From Eimeria necatrix (Eukaryota; Apicomplexa; Conoidasida; Eucoccidiorida; Eimeriidae), in contig NW_013654981.1 of NCBI RefSeq assembly GCF_000499385.1, positions 3,252-67,251 on the forward strand: 64,000 nt of DNA, written 5' to 3'. Within the stretch, counting starts at the first letter, position 1; every line of letters starts with the position of its first letter. The notes under the pieces were generated by a model that saw nothing but the letters and a program-made list of their open reading frames with translations, made no database searches and was not told the origin of the DNA. Made by a program: the position numbers and the translations under genes. Shown here one piece after another: positions 8,984 to 23,298 of the stretch.

Positions 8984-10874
8984 CTATGAATTGCTTGTGT
9001 CTGCAGCAGAAGCAAAAAGGTCTTCTATGATGGGGGGAAGCAGCTGGAAACAGGGGGAAATAAGGGGCAGGTGCTGCAGGGGGAGGTGGAGGCCGTCAAA
9101 GGCGTACAAAACGTGGGGCTTGGGGGGCCCCTCAGGGGACCCCTCAGGGGCCCCCTTAGGGGCCCCCTTGGGGTCCTCAGAAGGGTTTGCGGACCCCCGC
9201 TCGCTGAACCGAATGTGCGGCAGCTGCAACAGACAAAAACAAAAACTTTTTAAATGCAACTAATAAGCACTCGTGGCAGCGAGATAGAGAACCCTTACGA
9301 GGGCTCCAAGGGCCTCTAAAAGCCTCAAAAACTGTATTTTACAGCGTTTAAGCCTTACACTCCAAACCCTAAACCCTAAACCCTAAACCCTAGATAGCCG
9401 CTCCCAGCTAAGAGCTGGTGCAAAGGCCCACGCACCCGGGGATAGCGCTGGCTGAAATGAGTCAAAATGACACTCTCGCATCCGCACTCAGCAGCTGCAA
9501 ACCACAACAACACCAAACCCCCAAAGCCCGAACCCTAAACCCTAAGCAGCATCCCCTAGCAGTTGAAACTGTAGCAAACGAGCAGCAAATGTATCTCCCC
9601 GAATGCCCCACACAACTGCATGCAAGGGGACTTTAGAACTCAAACAGCTCTTTTGGGGGCACCAAGTGAAGCCCCTGAAGGGCAGCAGGGGGCCCCTCTA
9701 GAGCGAGGCCCTTTGCTGCGTTTTGCTGGCTCCTTAGGTGCCCTTTGGAGGCCCCTCAGGGGCCCCCTGGGAGCCCAAGAGACCTTTTCGGGGCCTGCTG
9801 AGGGCCCCCTTAACTGTCCTTTGTGGGCCCCTTAGGGGCCCCTGGAAGCCCAAAAGAACTGCCGGGGGCCTCCTGGGGCCTCCTTAGGTTCCCTTAGGGG
9901 CCCCCTTAGGGGACCCACAGGGGCCCAAAAGAGCTTCTAGGGGCCCCCGTGGGGGCCCCTGGGGGCCCCCTGATGTACTTCTGGCGCACCTCCCTTGAGG
10001 ACTTCGGATACACAAGAATGCTTTTTATCGACTGCCTCTGAGTGAAGTGCATCTTCAAAAGTGGCTGAGACAAAAGGCAACGAAAAGAAAGAAAAAAGAG
10101 AAAAAGAGGGGATCACTGACATGGAAAAAGATAAAAAAGAAGAAGCCAGAGAGTCACAAAAAGCCGAACTGCTGGCCCACAATGAAAAAAAAACGAAAAA
10201 GCAAAAATAGAACAAGGAGATAAAAACACAACACCAGTAGCACAAAAACTTCACCCATAACCTCGCGCAGCAAAAGCGCCGCTGCTGCTAATAAAAGATA
10301 TGGCCTAAGGGGCCCAGCGGGGCCCCAGGGGCCCCCAGGGGGCCCCTGGGGCCCCTAAAGCCCTGCTGCTCCTAGGCAGCAGCCACGGGGGGCCCCCAAC
10401 TACTACTGCAGTGGGCCCCTAGGGCCTGTGTGCTTTTCGCTGGGCTTTTCTGCTGCTGTTTGTTGGCCACTTGCTGCTGCTGCGGTTCAGTTTGCTGCTG
10501 CGGTTCAGTTTGCTGCTGCTGCTGCAGTGCTCACCTTCGTGCAGCAGCACAGTGCACTTGTGCGCCAAGTTAAAGAGCTGGCTGCAGGGCCTCGTGTCTC
10601 CAGAATAAACAAAACTGAGTTTTTCGAAATCCACGCGGAGGCCAAAAGAGTCGGGGATATGGTCCACCTGAGCCACAAAGAAGCTGCGCAGTGCATGCAG
10701 TCTGGCGCAGCAGCAGCAGCGCAGCAGCAGCACTAGCCGCAGCAGCAGCTCGCCTGCGGCAGTAGCAGCAGCAGCGCCGCTAGCACTTGCAGCAGCAGCA
10801 TCGCTGCCAATAAAAAAATGAGACAAACAGCGCGCCAGCCACGGCAGCGCCACGGTCAGCCCGCCAGCAGCAGA

Positions 10875-10925
<51 letters not shown>

Positions 10926-11284
10926 CCGGTGCGATCCTCAGTTGCATCTTCTGGGCCTCTCCAGTCCAAGCCATTGCTGCTGCTGGCTGCAGATGTTCAA
11001 CGCTAAACTTTTCGTCTAAGTTGCAAACGAGAGACTCGCAGCAAACAAATAAGTGGGGCATTCGTGCGATCTCCCGGTCCAGAAACTCAAACCACTCCTG
11101 CAAAAATAAACCCTAAACCCTAAACCCTTAACCCTAAACCCTAAGCCCTAAACCCTAGAGATTCGATAAGCAAACAGCAGCAAAAATCCCTTCAAGCGGC
11201 AAAGCTACAGGCCGGCACACCTCACGAGCCAAGCACAAACGCAGGTCAGAAGCAGCAGCAACTGCAGCAGCTAGAGCAAAAGCT

Positions 11285-11326
<42 letters not shown>

Positions 11327-12078
11327 CCTGTAGGCGAGCTGGAGCAATCAGCAGGGGTGGCCTGGCATCGGGCCAAAGTGCTGCGCGGCACTGCAGCAGC
11401 GACATGAGCCCCAAGTGATGGTCCGCGTGACAGTGGGAAACGAAGATGAACCTGAAGAATTGCAAACCCTAAACGCTAAACCCTAAACCCTAAAGGCTCC
11501 TAAACCCTAAAGCATAAGTCCTGAAGCGGTGAGGGGACTTTTCGTTCAAATGGACAATCACCACAGGCACGCAGACACGGAAACAGCAGCAGCAGCTGCT
11601 GCAGCAGGAACTGCAGCACTGCTGCAGCAGCAGCTGCTGCAGCAGGAACTGCAGCACTGCTGCAGCTGCAGCTGCTGCAGCAGGAACTGCAGCACTGCTG
11701 CAGCTGCAGCTGCTGCAGCAGGAACTGCAGCACTGCTGTAGCTGCTGCAGCAGGAACTGCAGCACTGCTGCAGCTGCAGCTGCTGCTTCTGGCCCAGTAG
11801 CAACGGCAGCACCTGACGCTTCAGTGACAAAACCCCAGCGAGCGCCCCTCCAGCAGCAGCAAGACAGCAGCAAGGCAGCAGCACAGCAGCAGCAATGCAG
11901 CAGCACAACAGCAGCACAGCAGAAGCAAGCAGCAGCACAGCAGCAGCAACCCAGCAGCACAGCAGCAGCAGACGCACTGGATCGAGAGCAGCAGCTGCAG
12001 AAACTCCTCTTCGCTCTCTGTGGCACCCCGCAGCTGCGAGAGAGAGCCTTCCCCAAAGTCAAGAACAACACCTGCGAC

Positions 12079-12114
<36 letters not shown>

Positions 12115-15100
12115 TTGCGTTCCTGCTTGTTTTTTGTTTTGTTTCTGTTTGTTTTTACTTTGCTTTGTTTCCAATTTTGCTTCTTTTGCACCTCTTCGTC
12201 CGCCTTAGTCCTCTGCTCCTCAGGGTTTAGGGTTTAGGGTTTAGGGGAAACGGGGAGCAAACCGCAGCGAGGCCTTTTTAATTTAAAAAGACAGAATAAA
12301 TAAAGCATCAAACAAAAGACAAAAAGGAAAAAAAGACAAAAAGAAAACAAAAATGAAAGAGCAGCAAAACTTACTGAGGCCCTCCGTCAGCAAAAGAACT
12401 GCAGCAGAAACGTTGCGGTAGTGAGAAGGAGCAGCAGATCCAGTACCCAAAATCTTGAGAGCGGGGCCCCCAAAGCTGGGGGCCCCCGGGGGCCCCCCGG
12501 ATTGGGGGGCCCCCCGGGGGCCCCCCTGCGGGGGCAGGTGCTTGGCGAATTCCTCTTGGAGGTTTTTGAGGTCTTCGGGTTTGAAAAGAGACTGGAGAAG
12601 ACAAAAAGACAAACAAAAAGAAAAATTTTAAAAGATTTCGGCAGCAAAAGAACAAAAAGAAACAAATAAAATGAAGTTGTACGAAGATATGCATCAGGCA
12701 GCAGCCGCAGCAGCGCACCAGCACAGCAGCAGACTTCTTGCAGTGCAGCAGCTGCAGCAGACTCGCAGCAGCGGCAACTGCTGCTGCAGCTGCAGCAGGA
12801 GGTTTGCTGCTGCTGCTGCGCTTCTGCAGCAGCAGCAGCAGCAGCAGCAGCAAATGCCCTTTTGTCCTTTAGCCTCACTTCAAAGAAATCCACAGGGTGT
12901 TCTGCTCGAGGGGGAGAGTCGTCAACAAAGGCCTAAGACAGAAGACAAACGAAACGCAGAAAAATAAGCAAAAGCGGGGGGCCCCCGGGCCCCCTGGGGC
13001 CCCCAAAGGGCCCCCGGGGGGCCCCCAGGGGGCCCCCAGAGGGCCCCCTTGGGACCCTCGGCGCGACCCTAAGGGGCGCCAGGGGGGCCCCTGCAGCGCT
13101 CACGGGGGCCCCAGAAGGGTTTGCGCACGCCTGGTTAGGGGCCCGTGGGGGCCCCTCGAAGTGGAAAAGACAGAAACGGAGAAGTTGAGGAAAAATGACA
13201 TAAAAGGGGGAAAATAAATAAAGACCTTTGTGGGAAATAATTCAAAAGACCCACTCGAGAAGGGGGAGACAGCCAGAGCTTCCGCAAAGGTTCAATCTCA
13301 ATAACAGCATCCGGCTCGCACCCCAACGGGGTCATCTCCTGGGGGGCCCCTGCCTCCTTGGGGGCCCCTGTACCCTGGGGCCCCCCTGGGCCCCCACCCT
13401 TTGTATCTTTAGGGGCCCCTGCATCTTCGGGGGCCCCTGTACCTTCGGAGGCCCCTGTGCCTTTGGGGGCCCCTGTGCCTTTGGGGGCCCCTGTGTCTTT
13501 GGGGGCCCCTGTGTCTTTGGGGGCCCCTGTGTCTTTGGGGGCCCCTGTGCCTTTGGGGGCCCCCGAGAACCTTGTTGGAAAGAGAGGGGGCATTAAAACC
13601 CGGAGGAAATGAGTGAGTCTGGCTGCATGCATAAAGGGGGTGGACAAAACGGGGCTGTCGGACCTGCAGCCACAGAAGGCGCAGCAGCACGAAGCAAAAC
13701 CTCATGCTGCTGCTGCTGCTGCAGCTGCTGCAGCAGCTCCTGCTGCAGCGGCTGCTGCTGGGACTGACGCAGCTGTTGCTGCCGCTGGCCTTGCAGCAGC
13801 AGCAGCAGCTGCTGCTGCTGGCAGTGCTGCTGTGGCTATGCAAGATGCCCTTTAATCTTTCAAGGGACAACGGCGCTCTCAGCCCCCTAAGGCCCCATGG
13901 GGCCCCTAGGGGCCGTGGGGCCCTGCGGGGGCCCCCTGGGGGCCCCAGAAGCTTTGGGTCCCCACGAGGGCCCCCTGGGGGCCCCAGAAGCCTTAGGGCC
14001 CCGTGGCCCCACGGGGACCCTGGGGCCCCTGGGGGCCCCAGGGCCCCCAATTCTTTGGTAATTTGTTATTGGGGTTTTGCTCACTTGTTGCAGAATATGT
14101 GTTTAGTGTCTTTAGAAGACAAGGCTTTAATAAGGCTGCGGTACTCGGGAGTTTGCGTGATCTGTAGGGGCACCCGAAGCCGCACTAGGGTTTAGGGTTT
14201 AGGGTTTAGGGTTTAGAGCAGAGAGGGGCGCAGCGCAGAAGAGCGGGAAGGGGCACAGGGGCGCAACAGGCGGAGCAGCAGCAGAGACCCATGGCAGCAA
14301 AAACAGCAGCAGCAGCAGCAACGCAACAGAAAAGGGAGATGGAAGGGGAAATAAAAGGAGATCAAGAAGCAAAAAGCAAACTGAGGAAAAGACAAAAAAC
14401 ATGAACAAAAAGACAACAACGAGAGAAACAGAAGTGCTAGCTAGCAAACAGCAGCAGCAGCAGCAGAAGCAGCAGCAGAAGCAGCACCAGCTCGCCAGCC
14501 CGAGAACTGACTAGCTACCTATCTAGCTAGCTATCCAGCTAGACAGACAACTACCTATCTAGCTAGCTAGCAAGTTAGGTAGACAGATACCTATCAAGCT
14601 AGCTATCCAGCTAGCTAGCTACCTACCTAAGTCCTACATTTCTAGCTAGTTACCTAGCTAGAAATCTAGGTAACTACCCAGCTCGCTAGCTAGCTAGCCA
14701 CCTTGGCAGCTAGCTAGCTAGCTACATAGCAGAAAGAAACAGAAAAGCGAGGATTACCTGGGGAGAAGTCAAGTGGAAAACAGCCGAGATCTTGTCTGCA
14801 GAAGAAGTCTCAAGGAGCTTTCGCTGCAGCAGCAAAGCAGAAGACAAAAAGGACTTTTAGCAGCTCAATTTAACTTTCTAGCTGCTTCATTCTTTGCCTA
14901 TTTCCTTTTCCTGTGTCTCTGTCTCTGCGCTGGCTCTGGCCCGGTCTGCTGCTGCTGTTGCTGCTGCAGCTAGCTCAGGCCTTTTGCTGACCCCGTACAT
15001 CCCTCCCCAGCAGCAGCAGCAGCGACGACAGCAGCAACAGCAGCCGCCCCAGCAGCAGCAGCATCTGCCTCTGCAGCACCCGCCCCAGCAGCAGCAGCAG

Positions 15101-15195
15101 CACCCGCCCCAGCAGCAGCAGCACCCGCCCCAGCAGCAGCAGCAGCACCCGCCCCAGCAGCAGCAGCACCCTCCCCAGCAGCAGCAGCACCCGCC

Positions 15196-15242
<47 letters not shown>

Positions 15243-16747
15243 TGACCGCGTGGACTGCTTGCTGCTGCTGCTGGCACTGGAGGAAGACAAAAGCCTTTCC
15301 CTCGATGGGTTCGCTGCAAACTTGCGAAGGGTCGATCCAGCGGCCGTCGGGCAGCTGCACTTTTTGCCCGTTTTTGAGTTGTGCGTAGAGCGGGCCAGGC
15401 GAGATCTGCAGCACGCACAGCCACTCAACTAGCTAGCCAGCTAGCTAGCCAACTAGCTAGCTAGCCAGCTAACCAGCTAGCCAGCTAGCTGGGCATGTAC
15501 GGGGCACACAGCTAGCTAGCTTGCTAGCTAGTCAGCCAGCAAGGGAACCAGCTAGTCAACTTGCTAGCCAGCTACCTAGTCAGCTAGCTGGCCAGCTAGA
15601 CATCCATCTAGCTAGCCAGCTAGCTCGCTGGCTGGCTGGCTAGCCAAAGAGCCAGGGGGCGAGCTAGCCATGGAGAAGCAAAGCCAAAAGGAAGAGGAGG
15701 GCGAGGGCCAGCCGCCAGCTAGCTCGAATGGCCCAGCAGTGGGCGCCCTGAAGGCCTGTTAGCTAGCTAGCTAACTAGCTAGCTAGCTAGCTAGCTAACC
15801 AACGTGCAGAGCTAGCTAGCTGCGGGCAGCAGGTTGGCTAGCTGGCCAAACGCGGGGGCGCTTGGCTAGCTTCCCGCGGGCCTCAGCGCAGGCGCAGCAG
15901 AGGTGACAGCCAAAGAGACAGAAAAAGTAAAAAAAGGAAACAACTAAAAGAAATATATAAAAGAAATATGTAAAAGAAATAAATAAAAGACAGGGACCTC
16001 ACTCCTAAAGCTTTTGCCTTCTCAGGAAAGAAGCGGCCTCTCACTGTGGGGCACTGCAGCAGCAGCAGCAGACAGTCGGAGGCGTCGCCGTAGTCCCCAA
16101 AAAGAGCAGCCTTTGCTGCTTCCATGCTGCTGCTGCTGCTGCGGCTTGCTGCTGCTGCTGCTGTTGTTGCTGCCGCTGCTTGGCACTTCTGGTTAAACTT
16201 GCCCTGCAACTGACAGACAGCAAGACAGCAGCAGCAACTGCATTTGCTGCAGCAGCAGAGGTGGACACCACTGCAGCAGCAGCAACACTTGCTGCAGCAC
16301 GGACCTCCAAAGCGCCGGCAGCGCAGCTAAGAGCAGCAGCAGCAGCCACATGGTTGCCAACAGGGTGAACCTATGGCACCGGCAGCAGCAAAAGTGCAGC
16401 AGCAGCAGCAGCTGCTGCAGCAGTGGCGACTGCAGCAGGTCCTCACCTCCTCTTCAAGTTTCCGCCTTTTTATGCTGCCATTTTTTTCTGCAGCAGTAGG
16501 GCTGGAAGCTGCTGCCGCTGCTGCTGCTGCTGCTGTTGTTGGCTCATATGTGTCGCCGTAGTTGTTATTGCCGCTGCTGTTGCTGCCGGTGGTGCTAGTG
16601 CTGCTGCTGCTGCTGCTCAAGAGAGGGTTATCTTCGTGCTGCTGCTGCTGCTGCCTGCTGCTGTGGGGCAGGTAGAAGGCCTCCACAGGGATGCCGCTGG
16701 CTGTGCCCTTCACCGAGGGGCCATAGGAGCACGCACAAGTGCGGGGC

Positions 16748-16791
<44 letters not shown>

Positions 16792-17635
16792 TGCGCTGCC
16801 ACGCCGGCGGCAGACACCCCTGCAGACTCCGTCTGTACAGTAGCGCTCGCCCAGAAGAGACGGGGGGGCCTCGGGGGGCCCCATGAGTCTGTAGTTAATC
16901 TCCAAATGGTTGCTGCAACAAAGCGCCACAAAGTTGCTGCCGCTGCTGCTGCAGCAGCTGCTGCTGCTGCTGTTGCGAACTAAGCTTTGTTTGCTCATGA
17001 GACCAAACGCAGGCCGGGAAGAAGCCTCTTTTTCTCGTCAACAGTGCAGCTAGCTAGCTGGCTACCGGAATAGCTAACTAGCAGTTAGCTAGCCAGTCAG
17101 CTAGCTAGCGAGCTGGCTAGGCAGCTATCTCGCTAGCTAGCTAGGCGGCTTGCTAGGCAGCCGTCTAGCCAGCTAACTAGCCAACTAGCTATCCAGCTAG
17201 CTCTGCAGCTATATAGGCAGCTCGCTGGGCTGGGCAGCTAGCTAGTAGGCCAGCTAGCCAGCTAGCGGTGCAGCTAGCTGGGCAGCTAGCTGTGCAGCTA
17301 GCTGGGCAGCTAGCTGTGCAGCTAGCCGGGCAGCTAGCTGTGAAGCTAGCTGTGGAGCTAGCTGTGCAGTTAGCTGTGCAGCTAGCTGGGCAGTTGGCTG
17401 TGCAGCTAGCTGTGCAGCTAGCTACAGCTAGCTCAGTGGCCTGCGAAGGTCCTCATGGCTAGCTGCAGCAAAGGCCTGAGCCCGTGGGGGCCCCACAGGG
17501 TCACTGCTGCGCTGCCTGTGCCTTCGAGAGATAAGAGAAGGCCAATTAGCCCAGCAGCAGCAGCAGGAGAAAGCGAAGTCAAGAAAATGTCACTTATCCG
17601 GTGAATGTGCAGCTTCTTCTCCAAGTGGTACCTGC

Positions 17636-17692
<57 letters not shown>

Positions 17693-18889
17693 GGTGAACG
17701 GGCAGCCCGCTAGGGGGCGCCAGGCCACCGAAAGCAGCCTGCGTGCTGGGCGCGATAACAGCTAGCTACCTAGCTGGCTAGCCACCTAGCTAGCTAGTTA
17801 GCTGGCTGGCTAGCTAGCTAGCTAGCTAGGCATCCGGATTCGACTGTGGCTAGCTGGCCGGCTCCTTCCGCAGCTAGCTGCCTCGATTTGCAGCTAGCTA
17901 GCTAGATCGCTATACAGCTAGCTAGACAAATAGATATACAGCTAAGCAACTAAATGGCTAGTCGGAGCAGGGGCCACCTGGCTAGCTGGCTAGCCAGGCG
18001 GCGGGTTGACAGCTAGCTCTTCGACTTTGGCGAATTCAAGAGTTGACCAGCTAGCTAGCTGTCTAGCTAGCTAGCGAATGCACTGAATAGCTGGCTAGCT
18101 AGCTAGCTAAACAATGAACCGGCCCAATGGCTGCATTGCAGGGCAACAGGCTGCTGGCCAGTACCTGGGCAGCTAGCCATTTAGCTAGCTAGCCAGCCCT
18201 TCAGCCAGCTCACCATCTAGCTAGCTAGCTAGCTATCCAGCCAACTCACTAACCAGCTAGCTAGCTTGCTAGCTATCCAGCTAGCTCGCTAGCTAGCTAG
18301 CCAGCTAGCTATCTGGCTAGCTCCCTATCCATCTAGCCCACTAGCTAGCTATCTAGCTAGCCATTTGGCTAGCTAGCTAGCTAGCTAGCTAGCTAGCTAG
18401 CCCGCGGGCCCTCACCTTTGCACATTTTCCCCCGCATTAATGAGAAGCCGAGAGCCCTCATAAAATATGTGGAGAGAGGGAGCCACCGAAAGGCGGTGGG
18501 AGCCCAGCAGCTGCAGCAGCACAACCAGCCCCAAACCCTAAACCCTAAACCCTAAACCCTAAACCCTGGGGCCCCCGGGATGTCTGAGCCCGCGCTCTTG
18601 AGGGCCCCTTCTGGGGCACAGGGGGCCCCCGCAGGGGCCCTGCAGCAAATTGGATTTTAAGAAGTTGAAGAGACAGAAAAGGAGGGGGAAGAAGCCCACT
18701 AACCTGGGCAGTGATGCTCATCGTGCTGCTGCAGCTGCTGCTGCTGCTGCTGCTGCGGCGGTTGCTGCTGCTGCTGCTGTGCTGCTGGCGCTCCTGAGCC
18801 AAAAGCAGCTGCAGGAAGCAGCTGCTGTTGTCCGGGTGAAGTGACAGCGCAGGGGCGGGGCCCCTCTCGTCGATGCTGGGGGCCCCCGC
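8984..18889 (-). CDS. ELAC2: tRNase Z, long form (ELAC2/TRZ1 type), about 17 exons
   Basis: This endonuclease removes 3' trailers from pre-tRNAs. Exons, 5' to 3': ?18889-18704, 18510-18416, 17631-about 17450, about 16911-16447, 16203-16003, 15405-15247, 13829-13600, 13570-13255, 12932-about 12640, 12591-12375, 12071-11978, 11451-11328, 11097-about 10930, about 10794-10535, 10064-9990, 9494-9436, 9223-8984 (stop TAG at 8984). Where both ends are defined the phases agree. The N-terminal, non-catalytic half shows [25 protein letters not shown] in place of [30 protein letters not shown] and [12 protein letters not shown]. The catalytic half shows [32 protein letters not shown] (HxHxDH zinc motif), HIPDSFG, SGDTRPC, HEATFED and THFSQRYPR, in family order. 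All key zinc and phosphate ligands appear present. Low-complexity inserts include poly-Gln, poly-Ser and a GAPKDT hexapeptide array. The start codon is not fixed, the donor after exon 3 lacks an obvious GT, and both edges around 12640 are uncertain. Nuclear or organellar location cannot be read from the sequence. Confidence 0.92.
9362..9394 (-). repeat. telomere-type tract in tRNase Z intron
   Basis: About four AAACCCT units lie between the two last exons of tRNase Z; on the gene-sense strand this reads TTTAGGG. Confidence 0.9.
9640..9985. repeat. GGGGCCCC-rich intronic block
   Basis: A dense run of self-complementary GGGGCCCC-type words fills most of the intron between the HEATFED exon and the THFSQRYPR exon of tRNase Z. 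Confidence 0.75.
11107..11158 (-). repeat. telomere-type tract in tRNase Z intron
   Basis: Five or six imperfect AAACCCT units sit just upstream, in gene sense, of the exon beginning at 11097. The acceptor follows the tract within about 10 bases. A second short tract lies at 11464-11515. Confidence 0.88.
11600..11785. repeat. 38-bp minisatellite in tRNase Z intron
   Basis: The word CAGGAACTGCAGCACTGC recurs at 11605, 11643, 11681 and 11719, exactly 38 bp apart, then at 11751 (32 bp). The unit is built from CTG/CAG words and is rich in PstI-like CTGCAG palindromes. It lies in the intron between the LDFGEGS exon and the SHCHADHH exon. Confidence 0.85.
12220..12246 (+). repeat. telomere-type tract in tRNase Z intron
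   Basis: Three to four AGGGTTT units on the plus strand, so CCCTAAA in gene sense. This is the opposite orientation to the 9.36 kb and 11.1 kb tracts of the same gene. Confidence 0.85.
12960..13165. repeat. GGGGCCCC-rich block
   Basis: GC-palindromic block in the tRNase Z intron between the 13255 donor and the 12932 acceptor. Similar words occur inside the adjacent exon 12375-12591, where they are translated as Gly-Pro-Ala. Confidence 0.75.
13405..13570 (-). repeat. 18-bp minisatellite translated as GAPKDT array
   Basis: About nine 18-bp units of the form GGGGCCCCTGTGTCTTTG (plus strand) run through the tRNase Z exon 13570-13255. In the gene frame they read GAPKDT or GAPKGT hexapeptides. 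The array is directly followed by the conserved-looking segment [20 protein letters not shown] in the same frame, so it is probably translated. It would sit in the inter-domain linker of the enzyme. Confidence 0.8.
13880..14055. repeat. GGGGCCCC-rich intronic block
   Basis: GGGGGCCCC words at close spacing in the tRNase Z intron between the 15247 and 13829 exon ends. Confidence 0.7.
14187..14216 (+). repeat. telomere-type tract
   Basis: Four AGGGTTT units in the large tRNase Z intron. Confidence 0.88.
14505..14735. repeat. CTAG/GCTAGC tetranucleotide array
   Basis: Imperfect runs of CTAGCTAG words on both strands. It lies in the same large tRNase Z intron as the 14187 tract. Confidence 0.8.
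15060..15205. repeat. CCAGCAGCAGCAGCACCCGC minisatellite
   Basis: Tandem 18-21 bp units made of a CAG run capped by CACCCGCCC, adjoining a (CAG)15 run. It lies just downstream, in gene sense, of the tRNase Z exon ending at 15247, so it is intronic. The antisense frames read as poly-Cys, poly-Ala or poly-Leu. Confidence 0.75.
15425..15860. repeat. CTAG/GCTAGC tetranucleotide array
   Basis: Over 400 bp of degenerate CTAGCTAGC words interrupted by short unique stretches, in the tRNase Z intron between exons 16203-16003 and 15405-15247. Confidence 0.8.
17045..17450. repeat. CTAG array with GCAGCTAGCTGT-type 12-mers
   Basis: This is the start of the longest CTAG region. Around 17268-17430 it organises into 12-bp units (GCAGCTAGCTGG or GCAGCTAGCTGT). 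It abuts the tRNase Z exon that begins at 17631 and hides that exon's donor. Confidence 0.8.
17640..17690 (+). repeat. (CAG)n microsatellite
   Basis: About 17 uninterrupted CAG units directly upstream, in gene sense, of the tRNase Z exon starting at 17631. Gene-sense it reads (CTG)n, ending in the acceptor GCGCAG. Confidence 0.85.
17758..18408. repeat. CTAG/GCTAGC tetranucleotide array
   Basis: About 650 bp of CTAGCTAGC words fill the intron between the tRNase Z exons 18510-18416 and 17631-17450. The run ends within 10 bp of the 18416 donor. Confidence 0.82.
18533..18568 (-). repeat. telomere-type tract upstream of an acceptor
   Basis: Five AAACCCT units (TTTAGGG in gene sense) about 25 bp upstream of the tRNase Z acceptor for exon 18510-18416. 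Confidence 0.9.
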
Positions 18890-19201
18890 TAGGGTTTAGG
18901 GTTTGGCTGTGGGGCCCCGGGGCAGCAGCAGCAAACTCTTGAGGGTTTTGCTTTTCTCCCTTTCAAAATATATTATTAATTGCGCAGCACAAACGGGGGA
19001 AACAAACGCGGGAGCAGAGAGAGCGGGCCGGACTGGGGGGATGTGGGGCCCCAGCTAGAACTAGGGTTTAGGGTTTAGGGTTTAGAGTTTAGGGTTCCTG
19101 GCGTCTGATCGCCCCAGTTGACTTCTTGGGCTTAACCCATTAAACAAAGCCTACTTATTTTGTATTTGTTTTGACTTTTAGCGTTTCTGTCTGTAAGCCT
19201 A

Positions 19202-19238
<37 letters not shown>

Positions 19239-19412
19239 CTGCTGCTGCTGCAGTGGCGAGTCATTAGCAGCGGAGGCGTACCTGGGGTGTATGCGCACCC
19301 GGGGTTAAACGCAGCAGCAACTGATGTAGCAGCAAAGTTTACAAGCAGGATTCATAGGCAAGGTAGCAGCTGCTGCAGCAGCAGCAGCTGCAGCAGCAGC
19401 AGCAGCAGCAAG
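18890..19412. promoter_or_regulatory. divergent intergenic spacer, tRNase Z / YVH1-type gene
   Basis: About 520 bp separate the 5' end of tRNase Z (-) from the ATG of the YVH1-type gene (+), so a shared bidirectional promoter is inferred. The spacer holds an AT-rich stretch with TATATTATTAATT near 18970, telomere-type tracts at 18894-18906 and 19062-19098, and a (CTG)n run at 19203-19258. No specific factor site is recognised. Either gene could have an extra upstream exon that would shrink the spacer. Confidence 0.35.
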
Positions 19413-19870
19413 ATGCCAGCGGTGGGCAATTTCGAGCTGCAGGAGCAGCAAAACCCGCAGCAAGTAGCTCAGGCGTCGGAGCAGCCACAGCCACAGCAGC
19501 AGCAGCAGCAGCAGCAAAAGCTGCAGCCGCAGGAGCAGCAAGACAGGGCACAGCAAGAACGGCACACGCAGCTGCAGACGCAGGGGGAGGAGCAGCAGCA
19601 GCAGCAGCAGCTGCAGCAGCAACAGAAGCAGCAGCAGCCTCAGCAGCTAGCTGCTTCGTCCTCAACCTCTCCAGGAACTTCTGACTCCCAAGCCATTGTA
19701 TACTGCTGCAGGTGCGCGTCTTGACGGGCCATTGCGCGGGGTTTAGGGTTTAGGGTTTAGGGTTTAGGGTTTAGGGTTTAGGGTTTTGGACCTCGGGTCT
19801 AGCTCTGCCAAGTGCTGCGCTGAACTCTCCTAGTAGCCTGGGCATACATTCACCACCTCTCTTCAGCTTG

Positions 19871-19920
<50 letters not shown>

Positions 19921-20108
19921 AGGTGCTGCCGGCACAAGCTGTTCTACGAGTCGCAGCTGTACCCTCACGAGCCCAAGGGGCCCCCCCCGGGGGCCCCCCG
20001 GGGGGCCCCCAGGGCCAAATGCACCAGTGCCTTTGTGGAGCCTTTGGGGTGGATGGGGGGTTTAGAGGAGCAGCAGGGAAGGCTTTGCTGCCCCAATCCA
20101 GCAGTACG

Positions 20109-20155
<47 letters not shown>

Positions 20156-20714
20156 ATCTGCTGCTGCTGCTGCTGCAGTTGCTGCTGGTGCTCTGCTGCT
20201 GCTGCTGTTGCTGCTGCAGCCGCTGCTGCTGCTGCAGCCGCTGCTGCTGCTGCTGCTGCGGAGGCTGTAAGGGCTCGGGCCCAGTTAGGGTTTAGTTAGG
20301 GCGTGCTTGAAGTTTGAGTAGGGTTTGATTGTGGTTTAATTAGGGTTTAATTAGGGTTTAATTAGGGTTTAATTAGCGTCTAATTAGGGTTTAATTAGGG
20401 TTTAATTAGGGTTTTGGAGAGCTTATTAGGGTTTATGATTTGCTGCGGGAGGTTTTCAGTGCGGCTGCAAACTTGGCAGCTGGAGTTGGGTGGGACTTAA
20501 GTGCTCTTGCGGCCACTGGAGCTCCCCAGCTTTCCAAGTAAACCCTAAACCCTAAACCCTAAACCCTAAACCCTAAACCCTAAGCACTCGACCTTGAGAC
20601 CTAGACCCTAAACCCTAAACCCTAGCTTCTACCGCCCGCAGCTCGGGTGACTCCCCTCTCTCAAAGCAGCCGACGCGAGGTGCAGCGGCAGCAACCACAG
20701 CCACACCAGCAGCA

Positions 20715-20773
<59 letters not shown>

Positions 20774-20873
20774 TGCTGCTGCGTCTTGCCTGCCGTAGGT
20801 GCACCTTTCTCGCATTGACAAACTGACGGCCCCTCACGCCAGCAGGGGCGCAGAGCCTTCTCTTCTCTTTTGA
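19413..20873 (+). CDS. YVH1/DUSP12-type zinc-binding domain protein without phosphatase domain
   Basis: Four exons join with agreeing phases: 19413-19711, 19923-20103, 20460-20537, 20799-20873 (stop TGA), giving 210 residues. The first exon, from ATG 19413, is Gln-rich. Then follow, in family order, YCCRCCRHKLFYESQLYPHE, a Gly-Pro-Ala insert, CTSAFVEPLGWMGGLE, GRLCCPNPACGCKLGSWSW, KCSCGHWSSPAFQ and VHLSRID. These are the cysteine pairs and the terminal (Q)xxxSRxD motif of the C-terminal zinc domain of YVH1/DUSP12. In yeast that domain is the part needed for 60S ribosome maturation (Mrt4 release). The HCxxGxxR phosphatase domain normally present upstream is not found: only about 520 bp separate this ATG from tRNase Z. 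The product is therefore either a stand-alone zinc protein or a gene whose phosphatase exons are missing or misassembled. Donors are GTGCGC, GTACGT and GTAAAC. Confidence 0.88.
19739..19787 (+). repeat. telomere-type tract in YVH1-type gene intron 1
   Basis: Seven TTTAGGG units lie between the donor at 19712 and a (CTG)n run that leads into the acceptor at 19922. Confidence 0.92.
20283..20432 (+). repeat. variant telomere-type array TTTAATTAGGG
   Basis: Intron 2 of the YVH1-type gene carries about eight units of an 11-bp variant, TTTAATTAGGG, flanked by TTTAGTTAGGG and TTTATTAGGG forms. The unit inserts ATTA or GTTA into the canonical 7-mer. Confidence 0.85.
20537..20626 (-). repeat. telomere-type tract in YVH1-type gene intron 3
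   Basis: AAACCCT units begin at the donor itself: the exon ends CAA and the intron begins GTAAACCCT. The orientation here is CCCTAAA in gene sense. Confidence 0.88.
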
Positions 20874-23059: not shown

Positions 23060-23298
23060 ATGGGAAGGTTGTGCCTCTTTGGAGCAGCAGGCATTGCTCT
23101 CCTTCTGCTGCTGCAGCCTCTTGCCGCAGCAGCAGCAGCAGCACAGCAGCAGCAGCAGGAAGATGAAGTCCACGTCTGCGAAGGCCGCGTGCTGCTCAGC
23201 AGCAGCAAAAGGAAAGATGGAGAAGAAGCTTTAGATCTCTCGGCTGTTTCTGTCAGACTTTTGACAAAGAATGGAGCTCTTTTAGATTCGCAGGTAGC

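What the first reader, a model, noticed from the sequence alone, without database searches (positions are those of the whole stretch)
19413..20873. A YVH1/DUSP12 zinc domain encoded without a phosphatase domain
Four short exons with agreeing phases rebuild the whole YVH1/DUSP12 C-terminal zinc domain after a Gln-rich leader. No HCxxGxxR phosphatase signature lies upstream before the divergent tRNase Z gene. In yeast the zinc domain alone supports the 60S maturation role of Yvh1. A natural stand-alone version would be a lineage that kept only the ribosome function.
Basis: partly seen in the sequence, partly recalled or inferred. Interest (0 to 1): 0.85.

Follow-up and report, generated by a model that had tools for sequence, protein, structure and literature searches.

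The report
Phosphatase-free YVH1 ribosome factor in Eimeria
A chicken parasite, Eimeria necatrix, appears to carry only the zinc-binding half of a two-part protein that in yeast helps finish the large ribosomal subunit; the enzyme half seems to have been lost, and the public gene model hides this by reading one exon in the wrong frame.

Summary
Confirmed with refinement. Four phase-compatible + strand exons (19413-19711, 19923-20103, 20460-20537, 20799-20873) encode 210 aa: a Gln-rich leader plus the complete YVH1/DUSP12 zinc domain. Best solved relative: yeast Yvh1 from pre-60S particles (E 5.7e-12). Deposited models for E. necatrix and E. tenella (P0001, P0002) read exon C in a wrong frame and lose most of the second zinc centre; all four E. 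tenella differences visible in exon C are silent in the YVH1 frame. HCxxGxxR occurs 0 times in six frames of the window; a YVH1 phosphatase profile finds only noise there. Upstream lies an opposite-strand tRNase Z. Six phosphatase loci were found elsewhere in the assembly; the two best tested rank as other DUSP classes, four were classed by eye. E. tenella and Cyclospora relatives also lack the phosphatase, as do two longer relatives, one from Amoebophrya. Mrt4, eIF6 and (by eye) P0 sequences are present. Likeliest function, inferred: Mrt4 release in P-stalk assembly. The Cyclospora protein already bears a plant-derived name, so: new variant of a known kind. Toxoplasma was not reached; the 5' end and assembly completeness are unproven.

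The parts
19413..19711 (+). Exon A: start codon and Gln-rich leader (MPAVGNFELQ...), ending in YCC plus two bases of the next codon (AG|G), i.e. inside the first Cys-x2-Cys
   Evidence: leader conserved from the same Met in E. tenella P0002
19923..20103 (+). Exon B: rest of zinc centre 1 (Cys ... His ... Cys), EPLGWM and the first Cys of centre 2; a Pro/Gly-rich loop stands in place of the yeast loop with F260 and R269
   Evidence: (E 2.8e-30)
20460..20537 (+). Exon C: CGCKLGSWSWVGLKCSCGHWSSPAFQ, rest of zinc centre 2 and the Trp aligned with yeast W329; public model reads 20410-20537 in another frame
   Evidence: (E 1.5e-11)
20799..20873 (+). Exon D: VHLSRIDKLTAPHASRGAEPSLLF and stop, matching the tail of yeast Yvh1 (HLQTSKVDQF)
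8996..16935 (-). Divergent upstream neighbour, ELAC2-like tRNase Z; leaves 16936-19412 as the stretch in which a hidden 5' phosphatase exon could lie without overlapping it
   Evidence: nine pieces found; five tested by PDB search, four, including both ends, by eye

Best explanation
The locus encodes a phosphatase-free orthologue of YVH1/DUSP12, reduced to a Gln-rich leader and the two-zinc C-terminal domain. It most likely joins late cytoplasmic pre-60S particles, wedges between eIF6 (Tif6) and the P stalk, bends the stalk rRNA and so releases the placeholder Mrt4 for P0. Shown here: the gene structure by sequence, domain identity, presence of the conserved Cys and His, no detectable phosphatase in the window, and Mrt4, eIF6 and (by eye) P0 sequence in the genome. 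Inferred: expression, zinc binding, ribosome binding and Mrt4 release; also that the phosphatase was lost, not moved elsewhere in the genome.
Against: The loop that in yeast carries F260 (sarcin-ricin loop) and R269 (H89) is 17 aa, Pro/Gly-rich and without aromatics, against 31 aa in yeast, so only W329 of the three contacts named in PMC6393466 is clearly kept. Yeast F283, whose F283L change fails to complement, is Ala here, although that position also varies in relatives. No expression evidence. The assembly search is imperfect: the L10-domain search returned only Mrt4 and no P0 although a P0-like C-terminus is there, so absence elsewhere is not proof.
Confidence: 0.74

Rival explanations
1. 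Hidden exon: the phosphatase is encoded by divergent or tiny exons further 5' on the + strand (within 16.9-19.4 kb or nested in the tRNase Z gene), and the protein is an ordinary full-length YVH1.
For: The leader frame is open upstream to 19203; the exons here are short and the region is full of repeats; the 5' end is not proven. The profile search used open segments of 20 aa or more, so tiny exons could escape.
Against: No HCxxGxxR in six frames of 64 kb; no YVH1-phosphatase profile hit above noise in the window. The E. tenella model begins at the same Met, and the Cyclospora model about 36 residues before the first zinc Cys. The 3251 contig bases before the window are withheld, so they were not tested.
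Confidence: 0.1
2. Gene fission: the YVH1 phosphatase domain survives as a separate gene (the candidate would be C531, 484-aa frame) and acts in trans.
For: C531 is the best match in the assembly for YVH1 phosphatase queries (42.8 and 53.2 bits; 72.5 bits).
Against: Against the PDB, C531 prefers DUSP10 (77.4 bits); human DUSP12 is not among the 60 rows shown of 75, and 57 rows (many of them repeats of the same DUSPs) precede yeast Yvh1 at 34.6 bits. Controls: a plant YVH1 domain puts DUSP12 first and second at 85 bits, a second YVH1 domain puts it second and third. Yeast Yvh1 is a poor yardstick: it is only 36th for the plant control (52.7 bits) and fifth for the other, so the argument rests on DUSP12. 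C815 prefers DUSP2/4 (48.1 bits) over DUSP12 (26.0).
Confidence: 0.08
3. Decaying pseudogene or misassembly: a broken remnant of YVH1 with no function.
For: Public models are mis-framed; the leader is low-complexity.
Against: All aligned zinc-centre Cys/His and the splice sites are intact; E. tenella shows only silent visible changes in exon C; a Cyclospora relative is 57% identical; one copy found.
Confidence: 0.04
4. The domain has been co-opted for a non-ribosomal role.
For: No aromatic residue in the loop that contacts rRNA in yeast; a Gln-rich leader instead of the enzyme.
Against: It is the only YVH1 zinc domain found, while Mrt4, eIF6 and P0 sequences are present.
Confidence: 0.08

Closest known systems
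YVH1/DUSP12 (yeast Yvh1, PDB 6n8m chain Y)
   Same: C-terminal zinc domain with the same seven Cys and one His, EPLxWM, CSCGxW and tail
   Different: No N-terminal dual-specificity phosphatase; 17-aa loop against 31 aa, no F260 equivalent; Gln-rich leader instead
Plasmodium falciparum YVH1 (PF3D7_0309000, 575 aa)
   Same: Apicomplexan YVH1 with zinc binding (title of Kumar et al. 2004, seen only in reference lists; length)
   Different: Reported as an experimentally proven phosphatase (passage of PMC4094981); its sequence was not reached here
Plant At4g18593-type 'probable inactive dual specificity protein phosphatase-like' proteins
   Same: Name borne by the Cyclospora relative P0003; the stand-alone layout of the plant protein is recalled, not tested
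   Different: Plants are unrelated to coccidia, so losses would be independent (inference); one paper reports an At4g18590-At4g18593 fusion transcript said to encode a dual-specific phosphatase (passages of PMC8827149), which may tell against a plain stand-alone form
Amoebophrya P0009 (580 aa) and P0005 (502 aa, source organism not given)
   Same: YVH1 zinc domain, no HCxxGxxR, no DSPc at E <= 5
   Different: Long N-terminal regions sharing a stretch of their own (BLASTP 2e-7); P0005 keeps aromatics in its loop

Membership tests
YVH1/DUSP12 family (whole, with enzyme) | C-terminal zinc domain with seven conserved Cys | tested here: met
   the count of seven is from passages of PMC9404827
YVH1/DUSP12 family (whole, with enzyme) | N-terminal dual-specificity phosphatase with HCxxGxxR | tested here: not met
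   none in the 64-kb window; the 5' end is not proven by transcript
YVH1 zinc-domain orthologue (domain level) | Best match among solved structures is the Yvh1 zinc domain | tested here: met
YVH1 zinc-domain orthologue (domain level) | rRNA contacts named for yeast: W329, F260, R269 | tested here: inconclusive
   W329 kept; no aromatic for F260; loop too short to place R269
YVH1 zinc-domain orthologue (domain level) | Releases Mrt4 from pre-60S | not testable with these tools
   Mrt4 sequence present; function needs experiment
Separate YVH1-type phosphatase in the same genome | A phosphatase domain whose closest class is DUSP12/Yvh1 | tested here: inconclusive
   6 loci; C531 and C815 tested by PDB ranking and not DUSP12-like (controls 49, 50); the other 4 judged by eye; searches score only the best candidates and the assembly may be incomplete

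The most novel reading that the evidence does not exclude
In eimeriid coccidia, and separately or by an older event in lineages such as Amoebophrya, YVH1 has been rebuilt as a ribosome-only factor: the enzyme is gone and, together with it, the loop that in yeast reaches the sarcin-ricin loop and H89 has been cut back. Of the 10 proteins compared, all 5 without HCxxGxxR (E. necatrix, E. tenella, Cyclospora, P0005, P0009) have loops of 12-20 aa, and all 5 with the enzyme (P0004, P0006, P0007, P0008; yeast, by the literature) have 24 aa or more; P0001 was dropped as the same gene. Three of the five short-loop proteins are close relatives, and P0005 still has two aromatics. If real, phosphatase and loop would work together in a step that these parasites skip, leaving a minimal stalk-bending wedge.
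Probability: 0.35. Interest if true: 0.68.

Novelty: new variant of a known kind. Interest (0 to 1): 0.5.

Why it matters
Yeast work showed that the Yvh1 phosphatase domain is dispensable for Mrt4 removal, and the function of that domain is described as unknown. A lineage that has naturally discarded it would be evolution's own version of that experiment and would show a minimal factor that suffices. The finding also corrects two public gene models that lose most of the second zinc centre. The loop difference makes a parasite-specific ribosome contact testable by structure.

Tried and rejected
Considered and rejected: the public exon C (20410-20537). A degenerate phosphatase in P0005: its start looks phosphatase-like by eye, but the profile gives 2.2 bits (E 16) and Pfam finds no DSPc at E <= 5, so I do not claim it. 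TFIIA, LAG-3 and TBP hits to the leader look like Gln-repeat matches. Pfam gave no hit to the zinc domain, so it cannot be used to count such proteins.

Led nowhere: finding Toxoplasma or Plasmodium YVH1. The word filter is strict, so this absence says little. Literature: searches paired YVH1 or DUSP12, or 'dual specificity phosphatase', with apicomplexans, Toxoplasma, Eimeria, Plasmodium or a lost phosphatase domain; in their listings, and in the passages read of PMC4094981, PMC8949495 and PMC4256932, I saw no description of a phosphatase-free apicomplexan YVH1. 'Eimeria' with 'YVH1' gives one paper, a Plasmodium phosphatome. Only open-licence papers are held. No paper was read whole. VIA-align: Mis18, MsrB, cereblon and RIG-I C-terminal folds follow yeast Yvh1, the nearest within one Z unit, i.e. 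tied.

Full report
WHAT WAS CHECKED. The window lies on contig C34 (68,165 bases) of an assembly of 44,016,600 bases in 1148 contigs. P0001, deposited as an Eimeria necatrix hypothetical protein on a contig of the same length, matches exons A and B exactly, so the organism is taken to be E. necatrix. I rebuilt the gene from the raw sequence: exon A 19413-19711, B 19923-20103, C 20460-20537, D 20799-20873, all introns GT-AG, 210 aa.

PUBLIC MODELS ARE WRONG IN EXON C. P0001 and E. tenella P0002 start exon C at 20410 (E. necatrix coordinates) and read it in another frame, losing the rest of zinc centre 2, and then end in CTFLALTN. Four E. tenella differences are visible inside 20460-20537; each has one single-base explanation, and all four fall on third codon positions and are silent in the YVH1 frame. 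Under a simple model with transitions weighted fourfold, 35% of visible changes would be silent, so four of four has a chance of about 0.015. Three further differences lie in what the corrected model calls intron. Changes silent in the public frame cannot be seen this way; the E. tenella DNA itself was not seen.

IS THE PHOSPHATASE REALLY MISSING? In the window: HCxxGxxR 0 times in six frames of 64,000 bases. A profile built from the phosphatase domains of four full-length YVH1 proteins was run with filters off over 2279 segments (six-frame open pieces of 20 aa or more from the window and loci L001-L006, plus the fetched proteins): its four source proteins score 210-284 bits, one frame in each of the six phosphatase loci of this genome scores 13.5-72.5 bits, and the best window segment has 6.2 bits, E 0.98. 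Upstream stands a tRNase Z on the other strand, nine pieces from 16935 down to 8996; five pieces joined give ELAC2 at E 3.2e-20, the other four, including both ends, are by eye. Elsewhere in the assembly: the DSPc family gives six loci. By PDB ranking C531 is DUSP10-like (77.4 bits; DUSP12 not in the 60 rows shown of 75) and C815 DUSP2/4-like (48.1 bits against 26.0 for DUSP12). Controls: a plant YVH1 domain puts DUSP12 first and second; another YVH1 domain puts DUSP12 second and third behind an unnamed 225-aa protein. Yeast Yvh1 itself is only 36th and fifth, so its low rank for C531 means little; DUSP12 is the telling row. The other four loci (C31 laforin-like, C943 capping-enzyme-like, C720 PRL-like, C942 CDC14-like) are named by eye from their motifs, not by a test. 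Two single-protein searches with YVH1 phosphatase domains returned no locus outside these six (5 and 2 hits). Caveat: the L10-domain search returned one match, the Mrt4 locus, and not P0, although a P0-like C-terminus (identified by eye) is at C868; short exons and missing contigs can hide a gene. The 3251 contig bases before the window are withheld.

RELATIVES. E. tenella (210 aa) and Cyclospora (217 aa, 57% identical over the domain) share the stand-alone layout; Pfam finds no family in the Cyclospora protein at E <= 1 and no DSPc in the E. tenella one at E <= 5. Of six longer proteins found, four carry HCxxGxxR and a DSPc domain (P0004, P0006, P0008; P0007 as precomputed; motif); two do not (P0005 of unstated origin, P0009 Amoebophrya), and these two share a stretch of N-terminal sequence (BLASTP 2e-7). 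Plasmodium falciparum YVH1 is reported as a proven phosphatase (passage of PMC4094981). So the enzyme is likely ancestral and was lost in some lineages (inference); when, relative to Toxoplasma, is unknown, since no Toxoplasma sequence was reached.

HOW IT PROBABLY WORKS. [quoted passage not shown] Mrt4 removal needs neither phosphatase activity nor the phosphatase domain (passages of PMC9404827). The Eimeria genome has Mrt4 (C66; best PDB row 'mRNA turnover protein 4 homolog', E 1.4e-21; 6 of 8 rows named Mrt4, 2 named uL10), eIF6 (C483) and P0 (C868, by eye). The inference that the Eimeria protein does the same is good but untested. A difference to watch: between the zinc-centre-1 His and the third Cys yeast has 31 residues, with F260 and R269 among them, E. 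necatrix 17 (EPKGPPPGAPRGAPRAK) and Cyclospora 19, neither with an aromatic residue. Yeast F283, where F283L is a loss-of-function and dominant-negative allele, is Ala in both coccidia, but that position also varies in relatives with the enzyme.

VERDICT. Observation confirmed; interpretation largely right, but the function is inferred and the idea is not wholly new, because a plant-derived name for an inactive relative is already attached to the Cyclospora protein. I score the interest at 0.5.

Noticed in passing
window 20410-20537; P0001, P0002: Deposited E. necatrix and E. tenella models use a wrong acceptor for exon C and lose most of the second zinc centre.
   Followed up: yes
window 8996-16935, minus strand: ELAC2-like tRNase Z gene in at least nine recognisable pieces; its 5' end was not settled.
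   Followed up: partly
G000:C66 (L014): Mrt4 gene in pieces reading MPVSKRAKVVPLSKTKK..., FYGKNKVLQVALG... and FPHSMEPRLRSLGLPT.
   Followed up: partly
P0005 and P0009: Two longer YVH1 zinc-domain proteins without a phosphatase motif share an N-terminal stretch that looks PDZ-like by eye; the PDZ idea was not supported by Pfam.
   Followed up: partly
P0003, after PAFQ: The Cyclospora model reads on as VSPTQ, which could be an intron donor read through; its tail may be an annotation artefact with the same intron position as in Eimeria.
   Followed up: no
window 15420-18410: Dense GCTAGCTA-type tracts, long CAG/CTG runs and internal telomere-like AAACCCT arrays around the gene and within introns.
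   Followed up: no
window 23060-23290, + strand: Start of another + strand gene with a signal-peptide-like N-terminus ([49 protein letters not shown]...); not identified.
   Followed up: no
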